From: Pseudomonadota bacterium
Lineage (GTDB): Bacteria; Pseudomonadota; Gammaproteobacteria; Burkholderiales; Casimicrobiaceae
DNA: 43,699 nucleotides
Direction: 5' to 3'
Assembly (NCBI GenBank): GCA_018241765.1
Contig: JAFEDD010000023.1
Location: 1-43,699, forward strand
Part shown: piece after piece, positions 474-27,627 of the stretch
Position numbering within the stretch: the first letter of the stretch is position 1
Layout of the letters: each line of letters starts with the position of its first letter
The notes under the pieces: model-generated
The model's database searches: none
What the model saw: the letters and a program-made list of their open reading frames with translations, nothing else
Told to the model about the DNA's origin: nothing
Translations under genes and position numbers: made by a program

Positions 474-589
474 CAACTTTTCACTGAAATGACGTCCATG
501 ACAGGCTTGGAGCGTTGTTTTGCTCGAAGTCGACTTTTGGCGAAATGGCACGCCAAGCCCGTCATGGACGCCATTTTCCGAAAAAGTTG
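474..589. repeat. ~117-bp imperfect palindromic element, copy A
   Basis: Two 58-nt arms meet exactly at GTCGAC (529-534). Both outer ends read CAACTTTT going inward, and both arms contain CGTCCATGAC then GGCTTGG at equivalent positions. By hand alignment about 42 of 58 arm positions pair. Related copies lie at 19591-19707 and 27511-27627. This copy starts 58 bp beyond the stop codon of the minus-strand dadA-like gene, matching the spacing of the other two. As RNA it would fold into a very long hairpin, so it may act as a 3' structure or be a non-autonomous mobile palindrome. The rest of the 379-647 gap shows no gene. Confidence 0.8.
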
Positions 590-647
590 TTGCTGAAATG
601 GACGAGAAAATGGGCGCCGGACGCGGCTTCGCGCGGCGTATGCGCCA

Positions 648-1910
648 TCACAGCCGTTGCATGTCCGCGAGCGGGAAGGAGGGCGTGCGCCCGCCGATGA
701 GGTCGGCGACGATGCGCCCCGAGCCGCAGCACATCGTCCAGCCGATGTGGCCCTGGCCGCAGTTCCAGTAGAGCCTCTCGTGCTGCGGATCGCGCTGCAG
801 GATCGGCAGCGACGACGGCGTCATCGGCCGCTGGCAGGCCCAGCGCTCGACGCCCGCGTGCGGCCAGTCGAGTGCGCCGGGGAACAGCCGTTCGAAATGC
901 TCGCGATGGTGCGCGAAGTCGGCGTCGCCGAACGCGTTCTGCTGCCCGCGAAACACGGCGCCGGTGGTGAGCCGCATGACCGCGTTGGCGCCTTCTCCGA
1001 GCGGGCACCAGGCGACGAGCGAATCTTCGCAAATGCCGCCGCGCGTCGGCGCGCGCGCGGCGTCGCGCAACGGCACCGTCAACGAATGGCCCTGAACCGG
1101 ATAGATCGGCACCCGTCGGCCGATGCCGTGCGCAAAGGCCGGCGTGGCTGGTCCGAGCGCCACGACGAAGGCATCGGCCGATAGCGGCGCTCCGTTGGCG
1201 CGAATCGCGAGCCGACCGCGCTCGATGGACGCCTCGACGCGCTCGCCGAAGCGCAGCCGAAGCGCCCGCTCGTCGCGCGCGGCCAGCCATCGCGCCAGCG
1301 CCCGCGTGAAGGCGCGCGAATCGCCCTGCGCGTCGGTTGCGGCATAGCTCGCACCGATGATCGGCGAGGCGGCGAGCGCGCCTTCCAGCGCGATCGCCTC
1401 GTCGCGCGACAGCAACCGCAGCTCGCAGCCGTGCGCCGCCACGGTCGCTGCCCGCGCACGCGCCGCCTCGGCCGTGGCCGCGCTCTGAAACGGATAGAGC
1501 AGCCCGTCGCGGCGATAGTCGCAGGTGACGCCGGTGGCAGCGAGCGTCGCTTCCAGTTCATGCTGGCAAAACCGCGCAAAGCCGAGCTTGGCCGCCGAAA
1601 GCCGTGCGAACTCCGCCGCGTTGCAGTAGCGCAGAAATTCACGCCCCCAGCGCCACAGCGGCGGGTCGAACCAACGCTCGACGCGAAGCGCGCCGCCGCG
1701 ACCGCGCGCGGCCTGCATCAGCGTGCCGCGCACGGCCGGATTGGGCCACGGCAGCGCGCGCGAGGCGGCGATCAGCCCGGCATTGGCGTAGCTCGTCACG
1801 CCCGCTGCCTCGGGCAGCGCGTCGATCAGCTCCACCTCGTGCCCGTCGCGCCACAGGTAATACGCCGAGGCGACGCCGATCAGACCGGCGCCGAGGATGC
1901 TGATCTTCAT
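648..1910 (-). CDS. dadA: FAD-dependent D-amino acid dehydrogenase (DadA-like)
   Basis: This 420-residue protein belongs to the DAO family of FAD-dependent oxidoreductases and most resembles the small subunit of D-amino acid dehydrogenase, which deaminates D-amino acids to 2-oxo acids and passes electrons to the respiratory chain. The N-terminus has a Rossmann dinucleotide fold (GAGLIGVASAYYL, residues 7-19), followed by the acidic ribose-binding segment VELID. Near the C-terminus, RPMTPSSLPIL and NCGQGHIGWTMCCGSG match the conserved DadA substrate and FAD end. The length fits the family (about 410-435). ATG at 1910 sits 30 bp beyond the xthA stop, so it is probably last in the operon. Assignment to dadA rather than another DAO paralogue is by similarity only. 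Confidence 0.82.
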   Translation of the reverse strand: MKISILGAGLIGVASAYYLWRDGHEVELIDALPEAAGVTSYANAGLIAASRALPWPNPAVRGTLMQAARGRGGALRVERWFDPPLWRWGREFLRYCNAAEFARLSAAKLGFARFCQHELEATLAATGVTCDYRRDGLLYPFQSAATAEAARARAATVAAHGCELRLLSRDEAIALEGALAASPIIGASYAATDAQGDSRAFTRALARWLAARDERALRLRFGERVEASIERGRLAIRANGAPLSADAFVVALGPATPAFAHGIGRRVPIYPVQGHSLTVPLRDAARAPTRGGICEDSLVAWCPLGEGANAVMRLTTGAVFRGQQNAFGDADFAHHREHFERLFPGALDWPHAGVERWACQRPMTPSSLPILQRDPQHERLYWNCGQGHIGWTMCCGSGRIVADLIGGRTPSFPLADMQRL

Positions 1911-1940
1911 GGCGTATGCAGGATGCGGCTGCCGCCGCGC

Positions 1941-2726: not shown

Positions 2727-2741
2727 GAACCGGGCGGCAGC

Positions 2742-3344: not shown

Positions 3345-3440
3345 GACGGTGTCTCCAGAGTGATTCCGGTCTATCGGGCGCGGCCGGGCCGCGTTCCGAC
3401 AACGACCGCCCATCCCCTTTTGTTTACCGACTTATTCTGA

Positions 3441-6245: not shown

Positions 6246-6262
6246 GGCATCGGGCGCTGTCC

Positions 6263-7309
6263 TCAAAACGTGTAACCCGTCTGCGCCGTCACGCCCTCGA
6301 TGCGGTCGCACAGCGCGCCGAGCGGCGCCAGCGCCTGATAGCGGCGCGCGGCGTGGCGCACGTAGCCGATGAAGCGGGGCGTATCGGCGAGGTAATGCGG
6401 CTTGCCGTCGCGATAGTTGATGCGCGCGAAGATGCCGAGCACCTTCAGGTGCCGCTGCGCCGCCATCCATTCCAGTTCGCGGTAGAACTCCGCGAAGTCC
6501 TCGCGCACCGGCAGGCCCGCCTTGCGCGCCGCAGCCCAATAGCGGGCGACGTAGTCGAGGATTTCCGGCTCCTCCAGCGTGAAGAAGGCGTCGCGCATCA
6601 ACGAGGCGAGGTCATAGGTGATCGGGCCGACCACCGCGTCCTGATGATCGAGCACGCCGGGGTTGCCGTTGCTCGTGCGCATCAGGTTGCGCGGCATGTA
6701 GTCGCGGTGCACGAGCACGCTGGGTTGCGCCAGCGCGCTCGCGATCAGCAGGCCATAGATGCGCTCCAGCGCGTTTTTCTCGTCGTCGCCGAGTTCGAGC
6801 GCGCAGTGGCGGCCGAGGTACCACTCGGGGAAGAGGTCGATCTCGCGCCGCAGCAGCGCGGCATCGTAGCGGCCGAGGGCGGTGTGCGCCGCCGCCGGGT
6901 CGATCTGCTGCAACGTGACGAGTGCCGCGATGGCATCGTGAAAGAGCGAGGCGCGGGTCACGGCATCGGCGGCGGTCAGCGCGTTGAGGTAGGTCGTCTC
7001 GCCGAGATCGGTCAGCAGCAGCAGGCCGCGCGCCTCGTCGGCCGCGAGCACGGCAGGCACCTGAATGTTGCCGCTCGCGAGCAGGCGACCGACGTTCAGG
7101 AACGGACGCACATCCTCCTTGGGCGGCGGCGCGTCCATGACGATGGCGGTCGCGCCGTTGCCGTCGCGCACGCGGAAATAGCGCCGAAAGCTCGCATCGG
7201 CCGAAGCCGGTTCGATCGAAGTCCAGCGCCCGTCGAGCGTGGCGAGCCAGCGCTCCGCCTCCGGCAGGCGGGTGTCGTCGGGCGTCGGGGCGAGATGGAT
7301 TCGTTGCAT
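6263..7309 (-). CDS. amgK: N-acetylmuramate/N-acetylglucosamine kinase AmgK
   Basis: A 348-residue aminoglycoside-phosphotransferase-fold kinase. It phosphorylates the anomeric carbon of MurNAc (and GlcNAc) for cell-wall recycling. The catalytic loop VLVHRDYMPRNLM is near residue 200, followed by the metal-binding GVLDHQDAVVGPITYD. The N-terminal SADASFRRYFRV and AIVMDAPPPKEDVRPF are characteristic of this APH subgroup. It is divergent from lptD, an arrangement known from pseudomonads. It starts at ATG 7309 and shares a 145-bp divergent promoter region with lptD. Confidence 0.88.
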   Translation of the reverse strand: MQRIHLAPTPDDTRLPEAERWLATLDGRWTSIEPASADASFRRYFRVRDGNGATAIVMDAPPPKEDVRPFLNVGRLLASGNIQVPAVLAADEARGLLLLTDLGETTYLNALTAADAVTRASLFHDAIAALVTLQQIDPAAAHTALGRYDAALLRREIDLFPEWYLGRHCALELGDDEKNALERIYGLLIASALAQPSVLVHRDYMPRNLMRTSNGNPGVLDHQDAVVGPITYDLASLMRDAFFTLEEPEILDYVARYWAAARKAGLPVREDFAEFYRELEWMAAQRHLKVLGIFARINYRDGKPHYLADTPRFIGYVRHAARRYQALAPLGALCDRIEGVTAQTGYTF

Positions 7310-7390
7310 CGATGGGCCGAGGGGTGTGTCGCAGTGCGTGCGGCAACCTGAGCATTACCGACTGCCGCCGCGTAATTCCTTGATTCGTCG

Positions 7391-7410
7391 GCTAAACTTG
7401 AAAGTTTAGC
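7391..7410. promoter_or_regulatory. 9-bp inverted repeat in the amgK/lptD divergent promoter region
   Basis: GCTAAACTT and AAGTTTAGC form a perfect 9-bp dyad with a two-base spacer (GA), about 45 bp upstream of the lptD start and 80 bp from amgK. It is an AT-rich patch in GC-rich surroundings, as expected of an operator or promoter core. I cannot name a regulator. The lptD gene is stress-regulated in some bacteria, but no confident sigma-E hexamers were found. Confidence 0.45.
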
Positions 7411-7454
7411 AATCCGCCTCCGGCCGTCGCGTAGCGCGCGGCAGGGTTCCCTCC

Positions 7455-9911
7455 TTGAACCGACCGCGTCCATCGCCCGTCTCCGCCTGCTGCTTCGTCG
7501 CCGTGCTCTGCGCGGCGGCACCGGCCGCCGGGCAATCGGCGTTCGCCTGCTCGTCGGCGGCGGTCGCAGGCGCGGCGAGTGCAGGCGGGGGCGCCGCAGC
7601 CGCGACACCGCGTGGCGCCGCGCCCTTCGTGCCGACCTATTGCCCCTCGGCCATCTCCTCGAACAGCAGCTACCCGCTGCAACTGAAGCCGCCACCCGAG
7701 AACGGCCGCGAGGTCACCACCATCACCGCGCACGACACCTCGGGTGTCGACAACCGCTATGTCGAAGCGACCGGCGAGGTCGATCTGCGCACGCCCTCCA
7801 AGCAGGTGCTGGCCGACTGGCTGCGCTACGACCTCGACATCGATACCATCCACGCGCGCGGCAACGTCGTGCTCCGTTCGTGGCAGGATCTGGTGAGCGG
7901 GCCCGAAATCGAATACCGGCGCGACACCGCCACCGGCTTCATGCGCGACCCGGCCTTCGTGCTCGGGCTGTACAAGGGGCGCGGCACGGCCGACCGGCTC
8001 GATTTCACCGGCCCCGAGCGCTATCACATCACGCGCGGCAGCTACACCACCTGTGTCGGCCCATCTCCGGCGTGGCGCATCGAAGTCGGCGAACTCGACA
8101 TCGACCAGAACGCCTCCGTCGGCCGCGCGAAGGATGCTCGCGTCTATCTGGGCGACATCCCCGTCGCGTGGCTCCCGCAGTTCAGCTTTCCGCTCGGCAA
8201 CGAGCGCAAGAGCGGGTTTCTCGCCGCCACCTACGGCACCAGCGGCAACCGCGGGCTCGACATCCAGGTGCCGTACTACTTCAACCTCGCGCCCAACTAC
8301 GACGCCACGCTGACGCCACGGCTGATGACGAAGCGCGGCCTGCTCCTGAACGGACAGGCGCGCTACCTCTTCGACACGCCGCTCGGGCGCGCGGTGGGCG
8401 AATGGAACGGCGAAGTCCTGCCGCGCGACCGCGTGGCCAACCTCACGCGCGAGGCGGCCAACCTGCGTCACACGCAGTTCTTCGCGCCCAACCTCACGCT
8501 GGCGATCAACTACAACTACGTCTCCGACCCGCGCTACTTTGTCGACCTCTCCGACTTCGTCGCCATCACCTCGATCACCACGCTGCCGCGCGACGCCACG
8601 CTGACCTGGCGCAATCACGACTGGCTCTACACCGCCCGCGCGCAGCGCTTCCAGACGTTGCAGGACCCCGCCGCGCTGGTGCTGCCGCCGTACGACCGCG
8701 TGCCGCAACTCAACGCCGAATCACCCATCTACCGGCCGCTCGCGGACAAGCGCTTCGAGTTCAAGCTGACCGCCGACGCCACCCGCTTTCAGTATCCCAA
8801 CGCGTCGTTGCCCTCGGGCTACCGCGCCTATGTCGACGGCAGCGTCGCCTGGCGCTACGACACGCCCGGCGTCTTCCTGACACCCAAGCTGCGGCTGCAC
8901 GCCACGCACTACCAACTCAATGGCAGCTTCGACGACTACGCCGATTCCACCCGCATCGTGCCGATCGCCAGCATCGACGGCGGACTGCGCTTCGAGCGCA
9001 ACGCCTCGATCTTCGGCCGCGCCTTCGTGCAGACGCTCGAACCGCGCGCCATGCTCACCGTCATCCCGTACCGCGACCAGAGCGAGACGCCGGTGTTCGA
9101 CACCGCGCTCGCCGACTTCAACGCGCTGCAACTCTTCAGCGAAAACCGCTATGTCGGCAACGACCGCATCGGCGACACCAAGCAGATCGCCATCGGCATC
9201 ACCTCGCGCCTGCTCGACGCGGACTCGATGAAGGAGCGCATGCGCTTCACCTTCGGCGAGCGGTTCTATTTCAGCGACCAGCGCGTCACGCTCTACAACG
9301 AACCCCAGCGCGACAGCAACAGCTCCGACCTGCTGTTCTCGGCGCAGGGGCGAGTGACCGACGCGCTCTACCTCGAAGGCGACGTGCAGTTCGACGCCAA
9401 CCTCGGCCGCGTGCAGCGCCACTCGCTCGGGCTGCGCTACACGCCCGAGCGGGCGCGGGCTCTCAGCATCAACTACCGCGCCATTCGCGAGCTCATCACC
9501 AGCACCGGCCCGGTGCCGGTCAAGCAGGTCGACATCGCCGGGCAATGGCCGATCTACCGCAACCTCTACGCCGTCGGCCGCGTCAACTATTCGCTGGCCG
9601 ACCGTCGGCTGACCGAGAGCGTGCTCGGGCTCGAGTACGACGGCTGCTGCTATGTCGTGCGCGCCGTCGCCCAGCGGCTCGCCACCGGCACCACGACGGT
9701 CACCAACGCCGTCTTCCTGCAACTCGAATTGAACGGCCTCGGCCGCGTCGGCTCCAGCCCGCTCGACGTCCTTCGGCGGAACATTCCGGGCTATTCCCTG
9801 CTCTACGAGAACCCGACGCGGCGTCGCCTCGACGAACCCACCACCAGCGGCCCGCTGTTCACGCCATGGAACGGCGGGGCGTCGCCGTACACTGCGGACC
9901 CCACGCGCTGA
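7455..9911 (+). CDS. lptD: LPS-assembly outer-membrane protein LptD
   Basis: An 818-residue outer-membrane translocon that, with lipoprotein LptE, inserts lipopolysaccharide in the outer leaflet. After a signal peptide (SACCFVAVLCAAAPAAGQ) comes an OstA/LptA-like beta-jellyroll around residues 80-190 (VDNRYVEATGEVDLRTPSKQ). A long beta-barrel follows to the C-terminus, rich in alternating aromatic strands. The CCYVVR segment near the end is the conserved cysteine pair involved in LptD disulfides. The only plausible start is TTG at 7455, with no ATG nearby upstream, so a slightly later start is possible. It is followed after 73 bp by surA, whose product folds LptD. Confidence 0.92.
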   Translation: MNRPRPSPVSACCFVAVLCAAAPAAGQSAFACSSAAVAGAASAGGGAAAATPRGAAPFVPTYCPSAISSNSSYPLQLKPPPENGREVTTITAHDTSGVDNRYVEATGEVDLRTPSKQVLADWLRYDLDIDTIHARGNVVLRSWQDLVSGPEIEYRRDTATGFMRDPAFVLGLYKGRGTADRLDFTGPERYHITRGSYTTCVGPSPAWRIEVGELDIDQNASVGRAKDARVYLGDIPVAWLPQFSFPLGNERKSGFLAATYGTSGNRGLDIQVPYYFNLAPNYDATLTPRLMTKRGLLLNGQARYLFDTPLGRAVGEWNGEVLPRDRVANLTREAANLRHTQFFAPNLTLAINYNYVSDPRYFVDLSDFVAITSITTLPRDATLTWRNHDWLYTARAQRFQTLQDPAALVLPPYDRVPQLNAESPIYRPLADKRFEFKLTADATRFQYPNASLPSGYRAYVDGSVAWRYDTPGVFLTPKLRLHATHYQLNGSFDDYADSTRIVPIASIDGGLRFERNASIFGRAFVQTLEPRAMLTVIPYRDQSETPVFDTALADFNALQLFSENRYVGNDRIGDTKQIAIGITSRLLDADSMKERMRFTFGERFYFSDQRVTLYNEPQRDSNSSDLLFSAQGRVTDALYLEGDVQFDANLGRVQRHSLGLRYTPERARALSINYRAIRELITSTGPVPVKQVDIAGQWPIYRNLYAVGRVNYSLADRRLTESVLGLEYDGCCYVVRAVAQRLATGTTTVTNAVFLQLELNGLGRVGSSPLDVLRRNIPGYSLLYENPTRRRLDEPTTSGPLFTPWNGGASPYTADPTR

Positions 9912-12720: not shown

Positions 12721-13455
12721 ATGACGCGTCACCGTGCCGCAGCGCTACACCTCGGTGCGTCGGCGGTGTTGGGCGCCATGTTGGGCGCGCTCACGTGGTT
12801 TGTGTGGTACCCGACACCGCTATTCCGTGCCGTGGGCGGCGCTGACGTTTTCGCGACGTTGCTCGCAGTGGATGTGATGATCGGGCCGCTGTTGACGTGG
12901 ATTGTCTTCAGGCCCGGAAAAGCATCGTTGCGCATGGATCTCACTACGATCATCATGTTGCAGGCAATCGCGTTTTCGTACGGCGTTTACACGCTGTTCG
13001 ATGGACGGCCGGTGTACATCGCGGCGCTGGGGCATCGGTTTGACCTTGTGCGTGCGAACGAAGTCGATCCGAGCGATCTGAAGGCGGCTGGCAAACACCT
13101 GCCTTGGTTCGGTCCGCAATGGGTCGGGACGCGCGAAGCGACCGATGCCAAGGAGCGTGAGCGGGTGCTCTTCGCCGCGGATGCAGGCGCGGATTACGGC
13201 AACTTTCCCCAGTACCATCAACCACTTGCGGCCATGCGGGCAGAGATACTCGCGAAAGCGTCGCCCGCCGCGGCATTGCGCGCGCTCAATCCGGGTGCGA
13301 GCGAAGCCATCGACCGTTGGTTGGCTGACCACGGCCACGACGTCGATAACACCGTCTTTCAAGGCATCAAGTCCCGCAACGAAGATATGACGGTGATGAT
13401 CGATCGCCATTCGGGTGACATCATTGGCATCGCCCCGTTTCGCCCGTGGAAGTGA
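12721..13455 (+). CDS. TfpX/TfpZ family type IV pilin accessory protein
   Basis: A 244-residue inner-membrane protein with three N-terminal membrane segments (LGASAVLGAMLGALTWFVWY, FATLLAVDVMIGPLLTWIVF, IIMLQAIAFSYGVYTLF) and a periplasmic C-terminal half ending DRHSGDIIGIAPFRPWK. This matches the TfpX/TfpY/TfpZ accessory proteins encoded directly downstream of certain pilin alleles in Pseudomonas, Acinetobacter and betaproteobacteria, where they are needed for efficient assembly or function of their cognate pilin. The position 30 bp after a pilin supports the call. ATG 12721 is preferred over TTG 12715. Confidence 0.85.
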   Translation: MTRHRAAALHLGASAVLGAMLGALTWFVWYPTPLFRAVGGADVFATLLAVDVMIGPLLTWIVFRPGKASLRMDLTTIIMLQAIAFSYGVYTLFDGRPVYIAALGHRFDLVRANEVDPSDLKAAGKHLPWFGPQWVGTREATDAKERERVLFAADAGADYGNFPQYHQPLAAMRAEILAKASPAAALRALNPGASEAIDRWLADHGHDVDNTVFQGIKSRNEDMTVMIDRHSGDIIGIAPFRPWK

Positions 13456-13514
13456 GCGTGCATGATTGTGCTTTTCTCTCTTCGGAGATGAACCCGATTT
13501 TCCCCTGAAGTGAT

Positions 13515-15359
13515 ATGCACCGCGGTTTGGTCTTGTGGTCGGTCGAATTGATCGCGTTCACTGTTGCGTTTTGGTCGTGGCGATTGAGCGTTGGCCAGGT
13601 TGTTACCCATGTCGTGTTGATGCTTCTGTTCTGGACGGCGATCGTGTCGCTTCTTCACTTGTTGTCCGTGTGGACAAAGGGTGCGGGATACGTGTCGCGC
13701 TTGGGTGCGGCGATCGGTGCGGGGACGGCGTTCTTTTCCGTTTGCGTCGCGCATCTCACCGTACTCGGCGCGCTGAGCAGTTGGGGGCAATTGCCGACCA
13801 TCGAGATGGTCGCGGCTTATCTGCACGAGTTGAAATTCGTCGAATCAGCCTTGGGTGTGGGCCGCGACTCGTTTGCCTTCGTTCTTTGCGGTATCTGGTG
13901 CGCGTGCGTCGCCCTCCACTTCGCGTTGTTGGCACCACTTTGGCGGCGACCAGTTACTGAAAGCGCGGCACGTTCATCAAGCCAGCGGCAAGCCGGGCTC
14001 GCCGTGTTGTTGCTTGTAGTCGCGTTGCCATCGTTTGCTGCATGGTATGTCAGCAATCCCTGGTTCGAGTCATTTGCAGAACCGTTTTGGGTGGCGATCA
14101 ATGGCAGTCCTTGGCGTGCGTCGCAGACTACGCTGACCAGCGAACTGCGTATCCAACAACTCCAGAAGCTTGACGATGCCGCACGCACAAGTTATGTCCC
14201 ATCGCTCGCACCAGTGCGAAAAAACGTTGTGCTGATCACGGTTGATGCGCTTCGGCCGGATCACATGTCGGCGTATGGATATGCGCGCAAGACGACACCT
14301 TTCCTCGACCGACTCGTTCGGGAAGGGCGTGCTCATGCGGCGAAGGAAGCGCGTGGCCCATGCGCTGAATCGTTCTGCGGACTGCTTAGTCTGTTGACAG
14401 GCAAGAGTGGCCACAAATTGGCACAACGCGACTTTGGTTTGGTGGAACTGCTGGGACGGTATGGGTACTACCGCCGAGCCATCCTTGGCGGCGACCATTC
14501 CCGTTTCTACGGATTGCGGGAGCGCTACGGGCCGTTCGATTCGTACACAGATGGCGGACTCATGGCAGGCGCGCAAAGCGTGAACGACGACGAGGCCGTC
14601 GTTGCGCAAGTTGAAGCGTTACCGTCCTTTCAGGGGAAGCCTGAATTTTTGTTTGTCCACTTGATGTCCGTGCATGGCCTGGGGCGAAAATTTCCTGAAT
14701 TTCAGAAGTGGACGCCGGCAAAATCCGTGTACAACCTCCGGGTGAAGAACCCTGATACGGTTTTATTGCAGGAAGTGGCCAACGCCTACGACAATGGCGT
14801 TCTACAAGCCGACGCGATGATTGGCAGAATGATGGCCGCACTGTCGGCGAAGGGGTACCTTGACAATGCGATCGTTTTTGTGACAGGTGATCACGGCGAT
14901 TTTTTGGGTGAACACAACCAATTTTCGCATTCGAAGACTCTGTTGGAACCGGTCATCCGTGTGCCGTGGATCTGGATTGGCGATGCCGCGCGCGCGCTCC
15001 CGCTTGATCGGCCGGTAGTACATGCCGATTTTGCGCCGACGCTGTTGAATATGCTCAATATCGCTGCCCCGAACCATTGGGATGGACGTGCCCTTCAGGG
15101 CGGCGCGGTGCTCAATCGATCGTTCCACCAGCAGGGAGAGTGGGTGGGCGTCATAGATTATTCTCGCGCACACACACTCAAGTACCTCATCGATCAAAAA
15201 AAACACGTGTCTGCGGTTTACGACTTGACCGCAGATCCTGCCGAGCGGGAGGACATCGCTTCGTCGATCGACCAGGGGCGCTTGGATGCGTGGCGGCGCG
15301 CATTGGAGGCGGAGCAGTTGCTTTCACCCTATGCTTGCCGGGACTCGTTGAACTGTTGA
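13515..15359 (+). CDS. Membrane alkaline-phosphatase-superfamily (sulfatase/phosphoglycol transferase-like) enzyme
   Basis: A 614-residue protein with five N-terminal membrane helices (about residues 5-190) and a large periplasmic catalytic domain, the architecture of LtaS, EptA and PptA phosphotransferases rather than soluble sulfatases. The metal-site motifs NVVLITVDALRPDHMSAYGY and TGDHGDFLGEHNQFSHSK are intact. The nucleophile region reads GPCAESFCGLLSLLTG (residues 281-296). It lacks the CxPxR formylglycine signature, so Cys283 or Ser286 would have to act as nucleophile. Being next to pilins and a pilin accessory gene suggests modification of pilin or a surface glycan by phosphoethanolamine or phosphoglycerol, as PptA does in Neisseria, but the substrate is inference. 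Composition is lower in GC than the flanks. Confidence 0.78.
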   Translation: MHRGLVLWSVELIAFTVAFWSWRLSVGQVVTHVVLMLLFWTAIVSLLHLLSVWTKGAGYVSRLGAAIGAGTAFFSVCVAHLTVLGALSSWGQLPTIEMVAAYLHELKFVESALGVGRDSFAFVLCGIWCACVALHFALLAPLWRRPVTESAARSSSQRQAGLAVLLLVVALPSFAAWYVSNPWFESFAEPFWVAINGSPWRASQTTLTSELRIQQLQKLDDAARTSYVPSLAPVRKNVVLITVDALRPDHMSAYGYARKTTPFLDRLVREGRAHAAKEARGPCAESFCGLLSLLTGKSGHKLAQRDFGLVELLGRYGYYRRAILGGDHSRFYGLRERYGPFDSYTDGGLMAGAQSVNDDEAVVAQVEALPSFQGKPEFLFVHLMSVHGLGRKFPEFQKWTPAKSVYNLRVKNPDTVLLQEVANAYDNGVLQADAMIGRMMAALSAKGYLDNAIVFVTGDHGDFLGEHNQFSHSKTLLEPVIRVPWIWIGDAARALPLDRPVVHADFAPTLLNMLNIAAPNHWDGRALQGGAVLNRSFHQQGEWVGVIDYSRAHTLKYLIDQKKHVSAVYDLTADPAEREDIASSIDQGRLDAWRRALEAEQLLSPYACRDSLNC

Positions 15360-15370
15360 TGTCGCATTTT

Positions 15371-16045
15371 TCAGCGCGATCTAAGCAGCACCAACTTCGA
15401 AAGCCCGAACAGATTCGCGCGCTTCACCGCTTCGATCGAAGATTGGTGCGCCGCAAAAACGTCATCAAAGGAAAAGGTTGACCTGAATCCGATCTTGGCA
15501 GCGAGTGGGCTTGCCAAGCGCTCCAATGCGTGCCAGAGGGGCGCGCCGCTGAAGTGGTTCACGATCACTACCATGCCACCGGTTCGGCACAGCCGCAACG
15601 CCTCTTTGAGTAGCGCTTGTGGATCGGGCGTTACAGAGAGAACGTAGGGCAGAACGACGCAATCGAATGTGCCATCGGCGTAGTCGAGATGTTCGCAATC
15701 ACACTGCTGCAAACTGACCGAGGCAAGTCCGTGCCGCTGGATGCGGGCGCGTGCGTGCGCGAGCATTTCGTCTGAAATGTCGACCCCTACAACGCGTGCT
15801 TCCTTCGGGTAGTGAGGTAACAACAGGCCTGTGCCCACGCCCATCTCAAGTATCGAGCGCGGCGAAAGGCGATTGATCGCGGCCAAGAGTTGATCACGTC
15901 CGTCTTGCAGAACCCAGCCAAAGAGTATGTCGTATACGCTCGCATAACGTCGGTAGGTTTGCTTCACGTCGACCAATGAAATCCTGTCGGACTCGCGATG
16001 TGATTGCGATTCATGCTTCATGCGCGTCGTTTTTTCGAGATGCAA
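15371..16045 (-). CDS. Class I SAM-dependent methyltransferase (PmtA/UbiE-like)
   Basis: A Rossmann-fold methyltransferase of about 217-224 residues. Motif I is SILEMGVGTGLLLPHYP, the acidic motif is VVGVDISDEML, and motif II/III FDCVVLPYVLSVTPDP is followed by GGMVVIVNHFSG. The overall pattern (YRRYASVYDILFGWVLQDGR at the N-terminus) resembles phosphatidylethanolamine N-methyltransferases (PmtA) and UbiE relatives, so phospholipid or small-molecule methylation is plausible. ATG 16021 (MKHESQS) is an alternative start to 16045. It is convergent with the sulfatase-like gene (11-bp gap) and shares its moderate GC, so it may belong to the same acquired island. Confidence 0.75.
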   Translation of the reverse strand: MHLEKTTRMKHESQSHRESDRISLVDVKQTYRRYASVYDILFGWVLQDGRDQLLAAINRLSPRSILEMGVGTGLLLPHYPKEARVVGVDISDEMLAHARARIQRHGLASVSLQQCDCEHLDYADGTFDCVVLPYVLSVTPDPQALLKEALRLCRTGGMVVIVNHFSGAPLWHALERLASPLAAKIGFRSTFSFDDVFAAHQSSIEAVKRANLFGLSKLVLLRSR

Positions 16046-16388
16046 TGGATATCGGTCGCTCTACGGCTTGCCCAAGGCGCCGATGGTTGATGGTGTTTCA
16101 ATGGTTTGCGTTGGCGTGCGTGAACGAAGGCATGGCAGTCGCGATCGCCCGGCGACAGCATGTCATTATCGCCGCTGGTGGGGCATCGGTCCAAAATCTC
16201 AGAACGCCCGCGTTGCGAGGTTGTTTCGCGGCCTCGGAGGAATACCGAATTTCCGGCGTCGAGTTCGCCATCCTGAACTGAAGTCGCATAGCCTTGGCCT
16301 TGACAAAGGAGGCGCTCGAATACGTCCCTTTTCCCTGGGTGAGAGGGTGCCGCGGGCGAGTGAGGGTGATGGCGCGGATTGGCCGAGA
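16046..16388. other. Gene-free stretch between the methyltransferase and REP cluster I
   Basis: No convincing gene is visible here. The open frames on both strands (about 100-150 codons) have no family features and unbiased codon use. The region begins just upstream of the methyltransferase start and so should hold its promoter, but no confident -35/-10 pair was found. It may contain decayed DNA at the edge of the pilin island. Confidence 0.5.
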
Positions 16389-16639
16389 GCTGTCGCCTAC
16401 CGCCCGATGTAGGCGACGGCTTGACGTCGCTTTCGTGGCATCGATCATCGCATCGTGACCGGTGACTCAAGGCGACCAAGCGCGGTCGAGCCCGCGCCTA
16501 CAACCTGATGTAGGCGACGGCTTGACGTCGCTTTTGTGCCGCCGGCCATCGCATCGTGGCCGTGACTCAAGGCGACCAAGCGCGGTCGAGCCCGCGCCTA
16601 CAACCCTAAGCGACCAAGCGCGGTCGAGCCCGCGCCTAC
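16389..16639. repeat. REP cluster I (five full copies and one partial)
   Basis: Type Z REPs (GTAG, stem GCGACG, loop GCTTGA, stem CGTCGC) on the plus strand begin at 16409 and 16510. Type Y REPs (GTAG, stem GCGCGG, loop GCTCGA, stem CCGCGC) on the minus strand cover 16479-16501, 16579-16601 and 16617-16639. A truncated Z-like end sits at 16389-16400. The spacer between inverted partners differs from that of clusters II and III (it contains CATCGCATCGTG and GTGACTCAAGGCGACC), so this is a separate lineage. The last Y copy supplies the vapC stop codon. Confidence 0.88.
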
Positions 16640-17372: not shown

Positions 17373-17412
17373 GGCGCATCTGATGTGTTGATTCTAATAC
17401 ATCAGATGCGCC
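17373..17412. promoter_or_regulatory. 14-bp perfect inverted repeat at the coaBC 3' end, upstream of vapB
   Basis: GGCGCATCTGATGT and ACATCAGATGCGCC are perfect inverted arms around a 12-nt AT-rich loop. The right arm overlaps the coaBC stop codon (17402-17404). Read on the minus strand, the hairpin is followed by GCTTTTCG, so it could terminate coaBC, act as the vapBC operator, or do both. Confidence 0.6.
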
Positions 17413-18646
17413 CCGCAATCTCCGCCACCAACGCCCGCGCCAGCGCGAGTTTGCCCATTTTCGGCAGTCGGGTGGCACCTGCGGCGCCGCGTTCGTCGAT
17501 GAGCGTGACCTGGTTGTCGTCGGCGCCGAAGGTGCTTTGGGCGTGGTTCGCGATGAGGAGCGGGATGCCTTTGCGGGCGCGTTTTTCGGCGCCGTACTGC
17601 TCGACGTTTTCGCTTTCGGCGGCGAAGCCGACGCACAGCGGCGGGCCGGACTTGCCGGCGCCGCGCCGCTGGTGCCGGGCGATGCGGGCGAGGATGTCCA
17701 CCGTCGGTTCGAGGTGGATGTCGAGTCCGGCGTCGGCCTTTTTGATTTTCTGCTCGGCGCACGTGACAGGGCGGTAGTCGGCCACGGCGGCGACCGCGAT
17801 GAAGATGTCGCTCTCGTCAACCTCGGCTTCGACGGCGGCGAGCATCTGCGCGGCGCTCAAGACGTCGACACGGCGCAGGCTGCCGGGTTCGCCATGGGCG
17901 GCGGCCGCGAACGGCGTCGGCAGGTGCGTCGGCCCGCTGACCAGCACCACATCGGCCCCCGCCTCGGCGCAGGCCTGCGCCAGCGCGTAGCCCATCTTGC
18001 CGCTCGAATGGTTGGTGATGACGCGCACCGGGTCGATGGCTTCCTGCGTGGGGCCGGCGGTGATGAGTACGCGCTTGCCGCGCAGCGTCTTGGGTTGCGC
18101 CCAGGCGTCGAGTGCGGCGAGGATTTCGTGCGCTTCGAGCATGCGGCCGTCGCCCGTCTCGCCACAGGCTTGCTCGCCGCAGCCGGGGCCGATCACGTGC
18201 ACGCCGTCCGCGCGCAGCGTGGCGACGTTCCTCTGCGTGGCCGGGTTTTGCCACATTTGCAGGTTCATCGCGGGCGCGACGAGGAGCGGAATCGTGCGCG
18301 CGAGCACGGTGGTGGTGAGCAGATCATCGCTGCGTCCGTGCACGAGGCGGGCGAGGAAATCGGCCGACGCCGGGGCGATCAGCATCGCGTCGTGGTGGCG
18401 CGTGAGCTCGATGTGGGCCATGCCGTTGTCGGGCCGGGTGTCCCACAGGTCGCTGTAGACGGGATGGCCGGAGAGCGCCTGAAAGGTGGCGGGGCCGACG
18501 AATTCGCGCGCGGCGGCGGTCATCACGACGGTGACTTCGCGGCCGGATTTGACCAGGAGCCGCACCAGTTCGGCGGCCTTGTAGGCGGCAATGCCGCCGG
18601 TGACGCCGAGCAGGACGCGCTGCGTCGGGAGGGGGGTCGGGTTCAT
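17402..18646 (-). CDS. coaBC: Bifunctional phosphopantothenoylcysteine decarboxylase/phosphopantothenate-cysteine ligase
   Basis: A 414-residue bifunctional coenzyme A enzyme. The N-terminal CoaC flavoprotein domain starts VLLGVTGGIAAYKAAELVR and includes LIAPASADFLARLVHG and the PAMNLQMWQNPATQRN motif typical of the decarboxylase, with GPGCGEQACGETGDGRM as the substrate-recognition cysteine clamp. The CoaB ligase domain follows: VLITAGPTQEAIDPVR, ITNHSSGKMGYALA, AVAAVADYRP with KIKK, and FAAESE. ATG 18646 begins the conserved domain, and the 18766 frame extension is rejected. It catalyses CTP-dependent ligation of cysteine to 4'-phosphopantothenate, then decarboxylation. Its upstream region runs into REPIN array II. 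Confidence 0.95.
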   Translation of the reverse strand: MNPTPLPTQRVLLGVTGGIAAYKAAELVRLLVKSGREVTVVMTAAAREFVGPATFQALSGHPVYSDLWDTRPDNGMAHIELTRHHDAMLIAPASADFLARLVHGRSDDLLTTTVLARTIPLLVAPAMNLQMWQNPATQRNVATLRADGVHVIGPGCGEQACGETGDGRMLEAHEILAALDAWAQPKTLRGKRVLITAGPTQEAIDPVRVITNHSSGKMGYALAQACAEAGADVVLVSGPTHLPTPFAAAAHGEPGSLRRVDVLSAAQMLAAVEAEVDESDIFIAVAAVADYRPVTCAEQKIKKADAGLDIHLEPTVDILARIARHQRRGAGKSGPPLCVGFAAESENVEQYGAEKRARKGIPLLIANHAQSTFGADDNQVTLIDERGAAGATRLPKMGKLALARALVAEIAGRI

Positions 18647-18736: not shown

Positions 18737-19579
18737 GTAGGCGCGGGCTCGACCGCGCTTCGTCACCTTCGATTCCGTGTAGCGCCGATCAACCGCCCGC
18801 GAGCGACGTCAAGCCGTCGCCTACATTCTGCGCACCTTGTAGGCGCGGGCTTGACCGCGCTTGGTTGCCTTCGCTTCCGCGTCGCGATGATCAACCGCCT
18901 GCGAGCGACGTCAAGCCGTCGCCTACATTCTGCGCACCTTGTAGGCGCGGGCTCGACCGCGCTTGGTTGCCTTCGCTTCCGCGTCGCGATGATCAACCGC
19001 CCGCGAGCGACGTCAAGCCGTCGCCTACGTTCGACGTCCCCTTGTAGGCGCGGGCTCGACCGCGCTTCGTTGCCTTCGCTGCCTTCGTCGCCTTCGATGC
19101 CGTGTAGCGCCGATCAACCGCCCGCCAGCGACGTCAAGCCGTCGCCTACGTTCGGGCAGGCTCGCCCGCGCCTCGTCACTGTCGGCGCATCCCTTGTAGG
19201 CGCGGGCTCGACCGCGCTTCGTCACCTTCGCTGCCTTCGTCACCTTCGCCGCCGGCCTGCGACGATCGACCACCCGCGAGCGACGTCAAGCCGTCGCCTA
19301 CGTTCGACGTCCCCTTGTAGGCGCGGGCTCGAACGCGCTTCGTTGCCTCCGGAGTCCGGCCTGCGACGATCAACCGCCCGCGAGCGACGTCAAGCCGTCG
19401 CCTACGTTCGACGTCCCCCTGTAGGCGCGGGCTCGACCGCGCTTCGTTGCCTTCGCTGCCTTCGTCACGTTCGATGCCGGCCTGCGACGATCAACCGCCC
19501 GCCAGCGACGTCAAGCCGTCGCCTACATCGGGAGGTTTGGTCGCGTTGCGCACAAGAGCGACGCCAAGCCGTCGCCTAC
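18737..19579. repeat. REPIN array II (Y+/Z- orientation)
   Basis: Type Y REPs on the plus strand start at 18737, 18839, 18941, 19044, 19196, 19317 and 19421. Type Z REPs on the minus strand start at 18802, 18904, 19006, 19127, 19279, 19383, 19504 and 19557. The first four Y copies are 102-103 bp apart. Y and Z strictly alternate until the end, where two Z copies are consecutive. Spacers share TTGCCTTCGCTTCCGCGTCG and GATCAACCGCC. A degenerate Y-like piece lies at 19151-19175. The copy at 19317 has one unpaired stem base (GAACGCGC). The array fills the gap between the coaBC start and the pyk end, together with palindrome B. No protein is encoded here despite long open frames. Confidence 0.93.
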
Positions 19580-19590
19580 CGTCGCGCCAT

Positions 19591-19707
19591 CAACTTTTTA
19601 CTGAAATGCGCATCCACAACGGGCTTGGCGCGCGATTTTCCATGAAGTCGACAAACGGCGAAATCGGCCTCCAAGCCCTTTATGAACGCCATCCTGACGA
19701 AAAGCTG
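19591..19707. repeat. ~117-bp imperfect palindromic element, copy B
   Basis: The palindrome is centred on GTCGAC at 19647-19652. Its left arm shares GCATCCACAACGGGCTTGG with copy C, and both arms carry GGGCTTGG at mirrored positions. It lies 11 bp after the last REP of array II and 59 bp beyond the stop codon of minus-strand pyk, matching the 55-59 bp placement of the other two copies. It has no coding potential of its own, and no target-site duplication was clear by eye. Confidence 0.8.
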
Positions 19708-19766: not shown

Positions 19767-21209
19767 TCAGCCCCGATGTGCGCCGACGCGCACGACCTTC
19801 AGCGCGTTGGTACCGCCGCTCTTGCCCATCGGTTCGCCACAGGTGAGCACGATGAGGTCGCCGTCGGCTGCGGCGGCGCGTTCCTTCAGCGCGTCTTCGG
19901 CTGCCTGCAACGCGCGGTCGCGGTCGGCATCGAAGGGCACCAGGAGCGGCCGCACGCCGCGATAGAGCGCGGCGCGGCGGGCGGCCGCGACTTCGGGCGT
20001 CAGTGCGTAGATCGGCACGCCGCTGTCGTGGCGACTCATCCACAGCGCCGTCGACCCCGATTGCGACAGCGCCGCGATGGCGCGCGCATTGAGGTGAAAC
20101 GCGGTGAACAGCGCGGCCATGGCGATGGCCTGGTCGGCGCGCACGAACTGCTGGTTGATGAAATCGCGGTCGAGTTCGTAGGACTGCGATCGCTCGGCTT
20201 CGAGCGCGATGGCGGCCATCGTGGTCACCGTCTCGACGGGGTACTTGCCGACGGCGGATTCGGCCGACAGCATCACCGCGTCGGTGCCGTCGAGCACGGC
20301 GTTGGCCACGTCGCTGACCTCGGCGCGCGTGGGCACCGGGGCGGTGATCATGCTCTCCATCATCTGCGTGGCGGTGATGACGAGCTTGTTCTTGTCACGG
20401 GCGCGGGTGATCATGCGCTTTTGCAGCGCCGGGACGGCGGCGTTGCCCACCTCGACCGCGAGGTCGCCGCGCGCCACCATGATGCCGTCGCTCGCCTCGA
20501 TGATGGCGTCGAGCGTCTGCGGCACGATGGCCTCGGCCCGCTCGATCTTCGCGATGAGCCGCGCGCTGCCGCCCGCCGCCGCCAGCACGGTGCGCGCCGT
20601 CTGCATGTCGGAGGCGCTCTTGGGGAATGACACCGCGAGATAGTCGACGTCGATGTCCACCGCCGTCCGGATGTCGGCCAGATCCTTCGCCGTCAGCGCC
20701 GGCGCCGTGAGGCCGCCGCCGAGCTTGTTGATGCCCTTGTTGTTGGAGAGTTCGCCGCCGTGGATGACCGTGGTGTGCACTTCGTCGCCCGCCACGCGGT
20801 TGACGGTGAGCTGGATCAGGCCATCGGCCAGCAGCAGCGTGTCGCCTGCGCGCACGTCCTGCGGCAGTTGCTTGTAGTCGAGGCTTGCGCGCTCGGCGTT
20901 GGAGATCGGGGAACGCGCATCGAGCGCGGCATCGAGGATGAACGCCTGCCCGACATCGAGGTGCACATGGCCATGCTCGAACTTGCCGATGCGGATCTTC
21001 GGGCCCTGAAGGTCGCCCATGATCGCCACCTCGCGGCCGCAGCGTCGGGCGCCTTCGCGTACGCGTTGGGCGCGGGCAGCGTGATCCTCCGGCGTGCCGT
21101 GCGAGAAATTCAGGCGGAACACATCCGCTCCGGCCTCGATCATCGCCGCAATGGTGTCGACGTTGTCGCTGGCGGGACCGAGGGTGGCAACGATTTTGGT
21201 GGCTTTCAT
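19767..21209 (-). CDS. pyk: Pyruvate kinase
   Basis: A 480-residue glycolytic enzyme converting phosphoenolpyruvate and ADP to pyruvate and ATP. It begins MKATKIVATLGPASDN, followed by FRLNFSHGTPEDH, GDLQGPKIRIG, LAVSFPKSASDM, the catalytic-Lys and metal segment RLIAKIERAEAI, GIMVARGDLAVEVG, and TATQMMESMITAPVPTRAE. The allosteric C-terminal domain ends with GTNALKVVRVG. ATG 21209 is the start. An open frame continues upstream to 21668 through the REPIN array, but that extension is repeat-derived. The gene is bracketed by REPIN arrays II and III in opposite orientation. Confidence 0.96.
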   Translation of the reverse strand: MKATKIVATLGPASDNVDTIAAMIEAGADVFRLNFSHGTPEDHAARAQRVREGARRCGREVAIMGDLQGPKIRIGKFEHGHVHLDVGQAFILDAALDARSPISNAERASLDYKQLPQDVRAGDTLLLADGLIQLTVNRVAGDEVHTTVIHGGELSNNKGINKLGGGLTAPALTAKDLADIRTAVDIDVDYLAVSFPKSASDMQTARTVLAAAGGSARLIAKIERAEAIVPQTLDAIIEASDGIMVARGDLAVEVGNAAVPALQKRMITRARDKNKLVITATQMMESMITAPVPTRAEVSDVANAVLDGTDAVMLSAESAVGKYPVETVTTMAAIALEAERSQSYELDRDFINQQFVRADQAIAMAALFTAFHLNARAIAALSQSGSTALWMSRHDSGVPIYALTPEVAAARRAALYRGVRPLLVPFDADRDRALQAAEDALKERAAAADGDLIVLTCGEPMGKSGGTNALKVVRVGAHRG

Positions 21210-22580: not shown

Positions 22581-22645
22581 GGTGAGCCTTAACGCACGAG
22601 TGCGGCCGTTGTTGACTGAGTCGTTGGCGCTCGACGCGCGGCCGC

Positions 22646-23299: not shown

Positions 23300-24968
<1,669 letters not shown>

Positions 24969-25110
24969 GGTGACGGTACGCTTTGAGAAACAAACTCGAT
25001 ACGAAGCGCTGCGCGTGGCGCGGCGCGATACGGGGCTATTGTCTCACTCGTTCAACATACACTGCGGCCGGTGGCGCCCGTGGCGCCGTTGACGGCGCGT
25101 TCGAAAAACC

Positions 25111-25893: not shown

Positions 25894-26273
25894 TCGACGC
25901 GGCGGAATTCGCCGTCCATCGTCTGCGGCGTGCCGGTGGCCGCGACCGGCACGGCTTGGACGCCGCGCGTGGGAATCAGCAGCAGCAGCAACGCCAGCGC
26001 GTCGCTGAGCACGCCGGGCAGCATCAGCAGTACGCCGGCCAGAAGGCGACGACCGCTGTCGAAGATGACCGGGCGCAGCGACAGCCGCTGCATCGCGGTG
26101 GCGAAGCGCTCGCGCATCGTGCGCGCCTCGTGCCGCAGCACGCCGATGCCGAACACGAAACCGGGCACGAACAGCGCCCAGCCCGGAACATTCAGCGCCT
26201 CGGCAAATCGAATGGTTGCGTAAATATCGAGCAGCGGCAGCGCGACTAAAATCCCGATCCACAAGAGCGGCAT
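25890..26273 (-). CDS. fxsA: FxsA family membrane protein
   Basis: A 127-residue membrane protein. It begins [20 protein letters not shown] and has [24 protein letters not shown] and [20 protein letters not shown], the PG-rich helices of FxsA (suppressor of F exclusion of phage T7). The C-terminus [10 protein letters not shown] is the usual polar tail. Function is unknown beyond this genetic link. ATG 26273 is chosen over 26354 because the first helix begins there. It converges on lgt with overlapping stop codons. Confidence 0.85.
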
Positions 26274-26361
26274 GAACTTCTCCCAACCCTTTCCTCTATT
26301 CCGCGCGGCCCACGGCGCCATCGATGTGCCCGATGCGCGCAGCGCGGCGACCACGCGGCGG

Positions 26362-26928
26362 ATGCATAGTATGACAGCAACGGTGACAAAAAGTGCTCGC
26401 CCTGGCGCGCGCCCGACCCGGCGCCTCGTCGGATCGACGTTGGCGTCGGTACTGGTGCTGGGCGCGGCAAGCGCTGCGCTCGCCGCCGCGCCAGCGCCGC
26501 CGCCCGAGCCGCTGCCCGTCGATCAGGCATTTCCGATCACGGCGGCGATCGAACGCGGCAAGATGGTTCTGCGCTTCGACGTGCAGCCCGGGCATTACCT
26601 GTACCGCGACCGCTTCGAGCTGGCGATGGGCGGGCACAGTCTGGCGTCGCTGCCGCTGCCGCGCGGGCGCATGAAGCAGGACCCGAACTTCGGTCGCGTC
26701 GAGGTCTACGAGCAGCCGATGCAGTTGAGCGTTCCGGCAACGCAGGGGGCCGCGGGAGCGGCGCCCGAGGTCAAACTCGTCTATCAGGGGTGCTCGGAGC
26801 TCGCCGGCGTGTGCTACCCGCCGGTCACGCGCACCTTCCGTCCGCAGGCCGACGGCAAGGCGGTGGCGCCCGTCGAAACCGGCGCCACCAGTTTCAAGGC
26901 GATGTTCCGCAAGCAGGTGAGTCAATGA
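26362..26928 (+). CDS. Stand-alone DsbD N-terminal (nDsbD) domain protein
   Basis: A 188-residue exported protein. The N-terminus (RRLVGSTLASVLVLGAASAALA) is a signal peptide. The rest matches the immunoglobulin-like N-terminal domain of DsbD: DQAFPITAAIERGKMVLRF, PGHYLYRDRFEL, and the active cysteine pair in VYQGCSELAGVCYPPVT. In full DsbD this domain receives electrons from a membrane core and reduces periplasmic partners; here the gene ends after it. The stop overlaps the tlpA start (ATGA), so the two redox proteins are probably coupled and may be partners. The start could be ATG 26362 or 26371; neither has a strong ribosome-binding site. Confidence 0.8.
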   Translation: MHSMTATVTKSARPGARPTRRLVGSTLASVLVLGAASAALAAAPAPPPEPLPVDQAFPITAAIERGKMVLRFDVQPGHYLYRDRFELAMGGHSLASLPLPRGRMKQDPNFGRVEVYEQPMQLSVPATQGAAGAAPEVKLVYQGCSELAGVCYPPVTRTFRPQADGKAVAPVETGATSFKAMFRKQVSQ

Positions 26929-27455
26929 GCGAGCTGTCCAACCGGTCACGGCGCGTGCTGATCGGCGCCTCGGCGGTCGCCGCGGCGGCGGCCGGCGTGC
27001 TCGGCGGACATTGGTGGCTCACGCGGGGCACCGTCGCCGGCGATGAGGCGAAACTGCTCGCGGCCAGTTTTCCGGCCATGGACGGTGGGCAGGCGACGCC
27101 GATGTCCACCTGGCAGGGCAAGACGCTGATCATCAATTTCTGGGCGACGTGGTGCGGCCCGTGCCGCGAGGAGATGCCCGACTTCGTGAAGGCGCAGCAG
27201 GCATTTGGCGACAAAGGGCTGCAATTCGTCGGCATCGCCGTCGATCGTCGCGACGCGGTCGAGCGCTTTGCAAAGGAACTCGGCATCAACTATCCGATTC
27301 TGCTGGCCGACGTCGCGTGGCTGAACGAACTGCGCACGATGGGCAACCCGCAGAGCGTGCTGCCGTTCACGCTGGTGGTTTCGCCGCAAGGCAAAGTAAC
27401 GCTTCGTCGCGTAGGCCGCCTCAAGTTCGACGAAATTGCCGCTATGTTCGCCTGA
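26925..27455 (+). CDS. TlpA/ResA-like membrane-anchored thioredoxin
   Basis: A 176-residue thiol-disulfide oxidoreductase anchored by an N-terminal helix (VLIGASAVAAAAAGVLGG) with the thioredoxin domain outside. The active site is NFWATWCGPCREEMPDF, followed by the TlpA-family insertion GIAVDRRDAVERFAKELGIN and the cis-Pro loop SVLPFTLVVSPQGK. Such proteins usually reduce apocytochrome c or other periplasmic disulfides. It overlaps the nDsbD-domain gene by 4 bp, so the two likely form one redox unit. Palindrome C lies 55 bp after the stop. Confidence 0.92.
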   Translation: MSELSNRSRRVLIGASAVAAAAAGVLGGHWWLTRGTVAGDEAKLLAASFPAMDGGQATPMSTWQGKTLIINFWATWCGPCREEMPDFVKAQQAFGDKGLQFVGIAVDRRDAVERFAKELGINYPILLADVAWLNELRTMGNPQSVLPFTLVVSPQGKVTLRRVGRLKFDEIAAMFA

Positions 27456-27510
27456 CTGCGTCGATCGTCGTCCGTCCGGATGAACCGTTCCACATCCGTT
27501 TTCGCCTGGG

Positions 27511-27627
27511 CAACTTTTGGCGCAAAGCCGCATCCACAACGGGCTTGGCGCGCATTTTTGCTTGAAGTCGACTATCGGTCATATCGCGCGCCAGGCCTGT
27601 TGCAAACGTCGTTTGCGAGAAAAGTTG
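27511..27627. repeat. ~117-bp imperfect palindromic element, copy C
   Basis: The palindrome is centred on GTCGAC at 27567-27572, with CAACTTTT at both outer ends in inverted orientation. The left arm shares GCATCCACAACGGGCTTGG with copy B. It sits 55 bp after the tlpA stop, the same relation as copies A and B. It lies in the 369-bp gap between tlpA and aroQ. From 27628 to 27824 I see only an AT-richer stretch that probably holds the aroQ promoter, with no confident hexamers. Confidence 0.8.

What the first reader, a model, noticed from the sequence alone, without database searches (positions are those of the whole stretch)
474..27627. A ~117-bp palindromic element always 55-59 bp after a stop codon
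Three copies (474-589, 19591-19707, 27511-27627) centre on GTCGAC, share CAACTTTT ends and GGGCTTGG-type core positions, and start 58, 59 and 55 bp beyond the stops of dadA-like, pyk and tlpA. Unrelated genes with the same spacing suggest targeted insertion or a selected 3' RNA structure. It differs in sequence from the REPs. I do not recognise a named element.
Basis: seen in the sequence. Interest (0 to 1): 0.75.

Follow-up and report, generated by a model that had tools for sequence, protein, structure and literature searches.

The report
Ancient palindromic DNA stations between genes
A little-known genus of uncultured bacteria keeps a 117-letter mirror-image DNA element at many places between genes, often at the same places in different species, while its inner letters differ from species to species, so it looks more like a protected docking site for a protein than like genetic junk.

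Summary
The three copies are real members of a dispersed palindrome family, 116-118 bp long, about 170 per genome by density (42 in 800 kb outside the window). The striking claim, a fixed 55-59 bp from a stop codon, is chance: 126 distances to gene 3' ends run from -3 to 1712 bp (median 41), and 17 of 111 copies lie between divergent genes. The family was recognised only in one genus of Burkholderiales. Copies often occupy orthologous junctions in different species. No target duplications and one recent duplicate pair were found. Fourteen copies not used to define the columns depart at 4.7% of conserved but 56% of variable cells, pointing to selection on individual copies. Arm sequence differs by species. 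Halves do not pair beyond the consensus, arguing for recognition as duplex DNA. A/T-rich positions recur about every 10 bp from the axis in the two species groups not chosen by pattern, resembling the gyrase motif. Best reading: a cis-acting site wrapped by a symmetric protein complex; gyrase is the leading, unproven candidate.

The parts
474..589 (+). copy 1 of the palindromic element (116 bp), 58 bp from the D-amino acid dehydrogenase-like gene (648-1910, -); no gene called to its left
   Evidence: (106 bits)
19591..19707 (+). copy 2 (117 bp), between coaBC (17402-18646, -) and pyk (19767-21209, -); the orthologous junction in relative G012 also holds a copy (L039)
   Evidence: (96 bits)
27511..27627 (+). 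copy 3 (117 bp), 55 bp after the tlpA-like gene (26955-27455, +), 197 bp before the next called gene
   Evidence: (91 bits)
529..534 (.). symmetry centre GTCGAC of copy 1
   Evidence: the centre is strongly conserved among own-genome copies
19647..19652 (.). symmetry centre GTCGAC of copy 2
27567..27572 (.). symmetry centre GTCGAC of copy 3

Best explanation
It is a long-lived, essentially immobile, multi-copy cis-acting DNA site of one genus. As duplex DNA it is read by a symmetric protein complex that contacts about 117 bp roughly once per helical turn: the ends (RCTTTT), the arms, the ATTT block and the GTCGAC centre. Most likely the DNA is wrapped on the protein, as on DNA gyrase or a comparable topology or nucleoid complex. 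The sites sit between genes, more often after 3' ends, where transcription builds up supercoils. The arms differ together by species because the recognising factor has changed. Shown here: the family, its intergenic location, frequent orthologous positions, absence of the mobility marks tested, position-specific constraint, species-specific arms, and no overall half-to-half pairing beyond the consensus. Inferred: selection on individual copies, a protein reader, wrapping.
For: Of 117 columns, 29 are at >=95% and 31 at <60% over 116 copies. As an independent check, 14 copies from the contigs that were not among the 116 depart at 19 of 406 conserved cells and 243 of 434 variable cells. Only one recent duplicate pair. 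Forty cross-species pairs have both flanks orthologous; of genes beside a relative's copy, 56 of 63 have their G000 orthologue within 300 bp of a copy, against 16 of 80 control genes. Of 78 shared junctions 54 lack it in both, 23 have it in both, 1 differs. No TSD. Halves do not covary overall. A/T periodicity near 9.7 bp in G000 and G005, copies not chosen by pattern (position-shuffle p < 1/2000 each). The E. coli gyrase motif is 130 bp, symmetric, with 10.75-bp GC phasing (PMC6379681, passages). The annotated Mu gyrase cut site is a local best axis for the element's A/T profile.
Against: No protein was identified and no binding tested. The Mu site ranks only 476-1797 of 36594 axes, as the best of ten. 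The periodicity of the other three groups is partly built in, because most of those copies were found by a pattern fixing centre and ends; in G012 the 7.9-bp peak even exceeds the 9.8-bp one; and G000 has A/T maxima off the 10-bp phase (31, 37, 60). Gyrase motifs are degenerate, so gyrase alone would not explain near-invariant arms. Sharing is incomplete: 27 of 119 relatives' copies had a both-flank match in the G000 set; in the contigs 7 of 12 both-flank cases hold a full copy, 7 of 8 when both anchors reach 150 bits, and 2 of 11 one-sided cases have a copy within 700 bp. Some copies are truncated or decayed. One mirror pair does covary (columns 31 and 95: 14 of 45 copies changed on both sides; z 2.85). 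Column-shuffled copies fold less stably than real ones (z -7.5, -8.3); swapping whole halves removes this, but structure inside a half is not excluded.
Confidence: 0.38

Rival explanations
1. An old MITE/ERIC-like mobile element that spread in the genus ancestor and is now dying; shared positions are inherited insertions and conservation is leftover similarity.
For: Intergenic, ~117 bp, palindromic, about 170 copies; five fragments, four damaged copies and a ten-copy composite half class beside or among the 45 copies above 50 bits in 844 kb; more in convergent than divergent junctions, as expected if promoters are avoided.
Against: Random decay would hit all positions alike; copies not used to define the columns depart at 4.7% of conserved and 56% of variable cells. 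No TSD. At orthologous sites copies are hardly more alike (0.587) than non-orthologous ones (0.575). Arms differ by species at the same locus (L011 in G000 against L070 in G008).
Confidence: 0.26
2. A REPIN-like system: two inverted REP-like arms spread and homogenised by a tyrosine (Y1, RAYT) transposase that co-evolves with the arms.
For: Two inverted arms, self-palindromic in several species (for example AACGCC..GGCGTT in G011); species-specific arms; Y1_Tnp matches in 15 of 17 genus genomes; REPIN architecture in PMC3116915 (passages).
Against: The stronger of two Y1_Tnp matches in G000 is embedded in a different repeat, GTAGGCGACGGCTTGACGTCGC. No Y1_Tnp match in G009, which has copies, and three in G010, where model R2 found none. 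One recent duplicate pair only. The centre, a less conserved spacer in REPINs, is strongly conserved in G000 and G005.
Confidence: 0.11
3. A 3' RNA element (bidirectional terminator or stabiliser) folding as one long hairpin or as two hairpins.
For: Close to 3' ends in most cases (106 of 126 distances <= 72 bp); convergent excess; stable predicted fold (mean -49.6 kcal/mol); one covarying mirror pair; self-palindromic arms in several species.
Against: RNAalifold finds 8 consensus pairs only; halves do not covary overall; no significant strand preference; 17 of 111 copies lie between divergent genes; the consensus 3' end AAAAGTTG carries no U-run.
Confidence: 0.14
4. A multi-site operator for a global regulator of the Lrp type that wraps DNA and controls neighbouring genes.
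For: Several symmetric blocks at near-helical spacing; species-specific arms as expected for a co-evolving DNA-binding protein.
Against: Sites favour 3' ends and convergent junctions rather than promoters. The regulator family is recalled, not searched for.
Confidence: 0.1

Closest known systems
DNA gyrase binding motif and strong gyrase sites, including BIME-2 (Sutormin 2018, PMC6379681, passages read)
   Same: Long symmetric duplex site (130 bp there, ~117 here) with A/T-G/C phasing near one helical turn about a centre; gyrase sites in intergenic BIME-2 and downstream of transcribed operons.
   Different: The gyrase motif is degenerate; here many bases are near invariant and the arms differ by species. 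Gyrase binding not tested; weak match to the Mu site.
ERIC/IRU and other bacterial MITEs (PMC2229807, passages read)
   Same: ~100-200 bp, inverted-repeat, intergenic, many copies.
   Different: No target duplication, one recent duplicate pair, orthologous positions with species-specific arms. No comparison with the ERIC sequence itself was made.
REPIN (PMC3116915 and PMC8049555, passages read)
   Same: Two inverted arms, each palindromic in some species; a persistent population of sequences in one genome.
   Different: Conserved centre in G000 and G005, longer, no link to Y1 transposase by neighbourhood of the gene inspected or by presence, no near-identical master sequence.
CIR, Caulobacter/Brucella intergenic repeat (in PMC2229807, passages read)
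   Same: Intergenic repeat with two stem arms joined by a linker, shared by related genera.
   Different: CIR carries a GANTC methylation motif; only 18 of 116 copies here contain GANTC. No sequence relation tested.

Membership tests
REPIN | two inverted REPs whose spacer is less conserved | tested here: not met
   arms inverted, but the centre AAGTCGACTT is strongly conserved in G000 and in G005, whose copies were found by model, not by a centre pattern; a TTCGAA-like centre appears in other genomes
REPIN | association with a RAYT (Y1) transposase gene | tested here: not met
   the stronger G000 Y1_Tnp gene lies in another REP array; presence does not track the element; the second weaker G000 match was not inspected
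REPIN | near-identical master sequence in many copies | tested here: not met
   one recent pair in 116 copies
ERIC/MITE | target-site duplication | tested here: not met
   offsets -3 to 3, lengths 2-10, |z| <= 2
ERIC/MITE | terminal inverted repeats, ~100-200 bp, intergenic | tested here: met
   CAACTTTT/AAAAGTTG ends; 42 of 45 contig copies 116-118 bp; 111 of 116 copies between two called genes, 2 overlap a gene 3' end, 3 lack a called neighbour on one side
ERIC/MITE | mobilising transposase with matching ends | not tested
   only Y1_Tnp was searched
Gyrase strong site | symmetric ~130 bp with ~10.7-bp G/C phasing | tested here: inconclusive
   phasing near 9.7 bp in G000 and G005; the other three groups are biased by the pattern that found them, and G012's strongest peak is 7.9 bp; Mu site in the top 1.3-5%
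Gyrase strong site | binding and cleavage by gyrase | not testable with these tools
   needs Topo-seq or EMSA
Intrinsic terminator | G+C-rich hairpin followed by U-run, after genes | tested here: not met
   consensus 3' end AAAAGTTG; 17 of 111 copies between divergent genes
Rfam families | covariance-model match at the gathering score | tested here: not met
   0 matches in the window, three copies included
CIR | GANTC methyltransferase motif in the repeat | tested here: not met
   present in 18 of 116 copies, not a family feature

The most novel reading that the evidence does not exclude
A genus-wide chromosomal addressing system: some 170 intergenic stations per genome, each a 117-bp symmetric wrap site, kept by selection copy by copy over the age of the genus and read by a protein whose specificity drifts, so that each species writes its stations in its own dialect. 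It would act in supercoil or nucleoid organisation.
Probability: 0.28. Interest if true: 0.85.

Novelty: new variant of a known kind. Interest (0 to 1): 0.62.

Why it matters
Dispersed bacterial palindromes are usually read as mobile debris, and whether they serve the host is an old question. This family shows marks of function on individual copies: orthologous positions across species, near-random variable sites beside near-invariant ones, hardly any recent spread, while the recognised sequence differs by species. That makes the question testable, since the dialects of the arms should lead to the protein that reads them.

Tried and rejected
Fixed-distance model: rejected. Target-site duplication: none. 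RNA structure: fixed-register covariation z 1.13 (Watson-Crick pairs only); mutual information dominated by neighbouring columns, i.e. two arm subtypes; column shuffles gave z -7.5 and -8.3, which looked like structure until whole halves were swapped (z -1.3). REPIN/Y1: disfavoured as above. My early note that no decayed copies exist was wrong: it came from loci fetched around good hits; the contigs show fragments, damaged copies and a composite half class. Plasmid collection: copy 1 has no match.

Biases: copies of other species come from capped model searches, which favour G000-like copies, or from a pattern that fixes CTTTT, AAGTCGACTT and AAAAG. So conservation of centre and ends, and part of the A/T phasing, is built in for JAPUER/G012, JAEUPL, JANX*, JAKPSO, JAGNQL and CALDYQ; their arms are free of this. 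Dropped before counting: four chance-like loci (Aminicenantes, Bacteroidia, Clostridium, Spirochaetales) and 2 of 235 copies without a recognisable centre. The 116 own copies were gathered by score; therefore repeats the conservation test on 14 others. Weaker matches in G007, G021, G011 and G002 look like further dialects, by eye only; an axis scan gave modest symmetry (23-37 of 60 bases), so absence means not recognised by model R2.
Full report
What is there. The three copies exist at the stated places and belong to a family. Search of the own genome (3.24 Mb draft, 76 contigs, 90% complete) with copy 1 gave 65 matches, itself and both strands counted. In 106 own-genome loci (616 kb, fetched around hits) I found 116 full copies scoring 75.7-108.2 bits. 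In 844 kb of contigs (800 kb not chosen for copies, plus the window) there are 45 copies above 50 bits, 42 of them outside the window, i.e. about 170 per genome; 41 of 45 score at least 70 and 42 of 45 are 116-118 bp long. Below 50 bits lie ten copies of a composite repeat that carries only the left half and the centre, and five other fragments; four copies at 50-70 bits are damaged.

Spacing. A home-made hexamer gene finder (checked only by the four window genes named) placed 111 of 116 copies between two called genes: 62 tandem, 32 convergent, 17 divergent. Two overlap the 3' end of a gene and three lack a called neighbour on one side. Distances to 3' ends: 126 values, median 41, 106 of them at most 72 bp, 4 within 55-59; to 5' ends: 96 values, median 103.5. 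Element-free junctions of 30 bp or more in the same loci were 172 tandem, 15 convergent, 55 divergent; the loci were picked for their copies, so this ratio is only indicative. The 55-59 bp rule is chance, while a preference for the 3' side is real but mild (32 against 17, p 0.044).

Who has it. In 300 genomes drawn from the order (134 genera, two other genera of the same family among them) four genomes matched at E <= 1e-4, all of this genus (stricter filters). An identical contig number and length suggest that G012 is JAPUER01. The genus name is not known to me from any call.

Positions are inherited. Among 235 copies (116 own, 119 of relatives) 40 cross-species pairs have both flanks orthologous, and 27 of the 119 have such a match in G000. 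Of genes within 300 bp of a relative's copy, 56 of 63 have the G000 orthologue within 300 bp of a G000 copy; for genes further away, 16 of 80. Of 78 gene junctions shared between held loci, 54 lack the element in both, 23 have it in both and 1 differs; since loci were chosen around copies, this shows co-location rather than a rate of loss. In the contigs 12 relative copies had both flanks placed: 7 with a full copy, 7 of 8 when both anchors reach 150 bits. Of the other 5, four rest on an anchor under 100 bits (two of these have their proper match elsewhere; a third junction holds a truncated copy), and one, L148, has good anchors and no copy. Of 11 copies placed by one flank only, 2 have a copy within 700 bp. 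So sites are long-lived but not fixed.

Constraint without mobility. Of 117 columns, 29 are at least 95% uniform and 31 under 60%; 81 of 116 copies have no departure at the 29. That count is partly circular, so I tested 14 contig copies that were not among the 116: 19 departures in 406 conserved cells (4.7%), 243 in 434 variable cells (56%). Nearest-neighbour identity at 46 variable columns is 0.617 against 0.590 for shuffled columns (sd 0.003): a small but clear excess, which I put down to linked arm subtypes. One pair stands out at 0.913, two copies 1.2 kb apart in L036; the next pair, 0.739, equals the highest of the shuffles. Orthologous copies are hardly more alike (0.587) than non-orthologous ones (0.575). 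Fresh copies would be alike at all positions, and neutral old copies would have decayed at all positions. Selection on individual copies is the simplest account; it is an inference.

Dialects. The arms differ between species: GCATCCATGACGGGCTTG in G000, forms with GGGCT in G005, GCCCAT..ATGGGC in G012, ACGACC..GGTCGT in JAEUPL and G008. The same orthologous junction carries a G000-type arm in L011 and a G008-type arm in L070. The ends RCTTTT and the centre AAGTCGACTT are strongly conserved in G000 and G005; in most other species they were part of the search pattern, so their conservation there is not evidence. Weak matches in G007, G011 and G021 suggest that the centre changes too. In several species the arm is a palindrome of its own; in G000 it is not.

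RNA or DNA. RNAalifold gives 8 pairs, one of which (columns 31 and 95) changes on both sides in 14 of 45 copies; mirror pairs as a whole do not covary within copies (z 1.13). Real copies fold more stably than column-shuffled ones, but not more than copies with whole right halves exchanged (z -1.3), so the effect comes from linkage inside each half. Neither orientation (31:18, p 0.085) nor strand stability significantly favours the transcript. I therefore favour recognition of duplex DNA.

Mechanism. In G000 and G005 A/T-rich positions lie near 4, 13.5, 24, 33, 44 and 53.5 bp from the axis, with further maxima off that phase (31, 37 and 60 in G000); the strongest spectral peak is 9.7 bp in both (no shuffle of 2000 reached it). 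Three other groups show 9.6-9.8-bp peaks (p 0 to 0.006), but most of their copies were chosen by a pattern, and in G012 a 7.9-bp peak is stronger. Symmetry, length and phasing resemble the E. coli gyrase motif (PMC6379681, passages). Scanning phage Mu with the element's A/T profile put the annotated gyrase cut site at rank 476 to 1797 of 36594, as the best of ten axes; the best axis fell at 17881-17884 in 11 of 12 tests, against 17881 expected if the annotated cut is one side of a 4-base stagger. These tests are not independent and the support is weak. Base-specific arms suggest a specific protein, alone or with gyrase.

Compared with the known. Rfam: no match in the window. REPIN: passages of PMC3116915 and PMC8049555; the stronger Y1 gene of G000 belongs to another repeat, and presence of Y1 genes does not track the element. 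ERIC, other MITEs and CIR: passages of PMC2229807; target duplication not met. Passages of a second gyrase paper and of a REP survey (PMC12393610, PMC12306157) added nothing that changes this. Paper searches listed no description of this family that I recognised by title and abstract start; the library lacks most subscription journals.

Noticed in passing
own-genome contigs C2, C22, C10, C6, e.g. C2:3025-3112 and C2:5439-5526 (L278): Ten copies in 844 kb of a composite repeat of some 240 bp or more that begins with the left half and centre of the element and continues with other conserved sequence, often among arrays of a GTAGCCTCGATGCAACGAAGTGGAATCGAGG repeat.
   Followed up: partly
L246 (own genome C24 around 7282-7605); window about 19510-19585: A Y1 (RAYT-type) transposase gene sits inside a dense array of GTAGGCGACGGCTTGACGTCGC REPs; similar units lie just before window copy 2.
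   Followed up: partly
L036:2946-3062 and L036:4153-4269: The only pair of recently duplicated copies among 116, 1.2 kb apart.
   Followed up: no
L289-L319 (G007, G011, G021, G002): Weak matches that look like further dialects: strongly self-palindromic arms (AACGCCTTATTTCGTAAGGCGTT in G011) and, in some, a TTCGAA-like centre in place of GTCGAC.
   Followed up: partly
window 13455-16636: A stretch of about 3 kb with no gene called by the second version of the gene finder.
   Followed up: no
L041 (G005), arm of the element: One arm contains TTATCCACA, the DnaA-box consensus as I recall it; probably chance.
   Followed up: no
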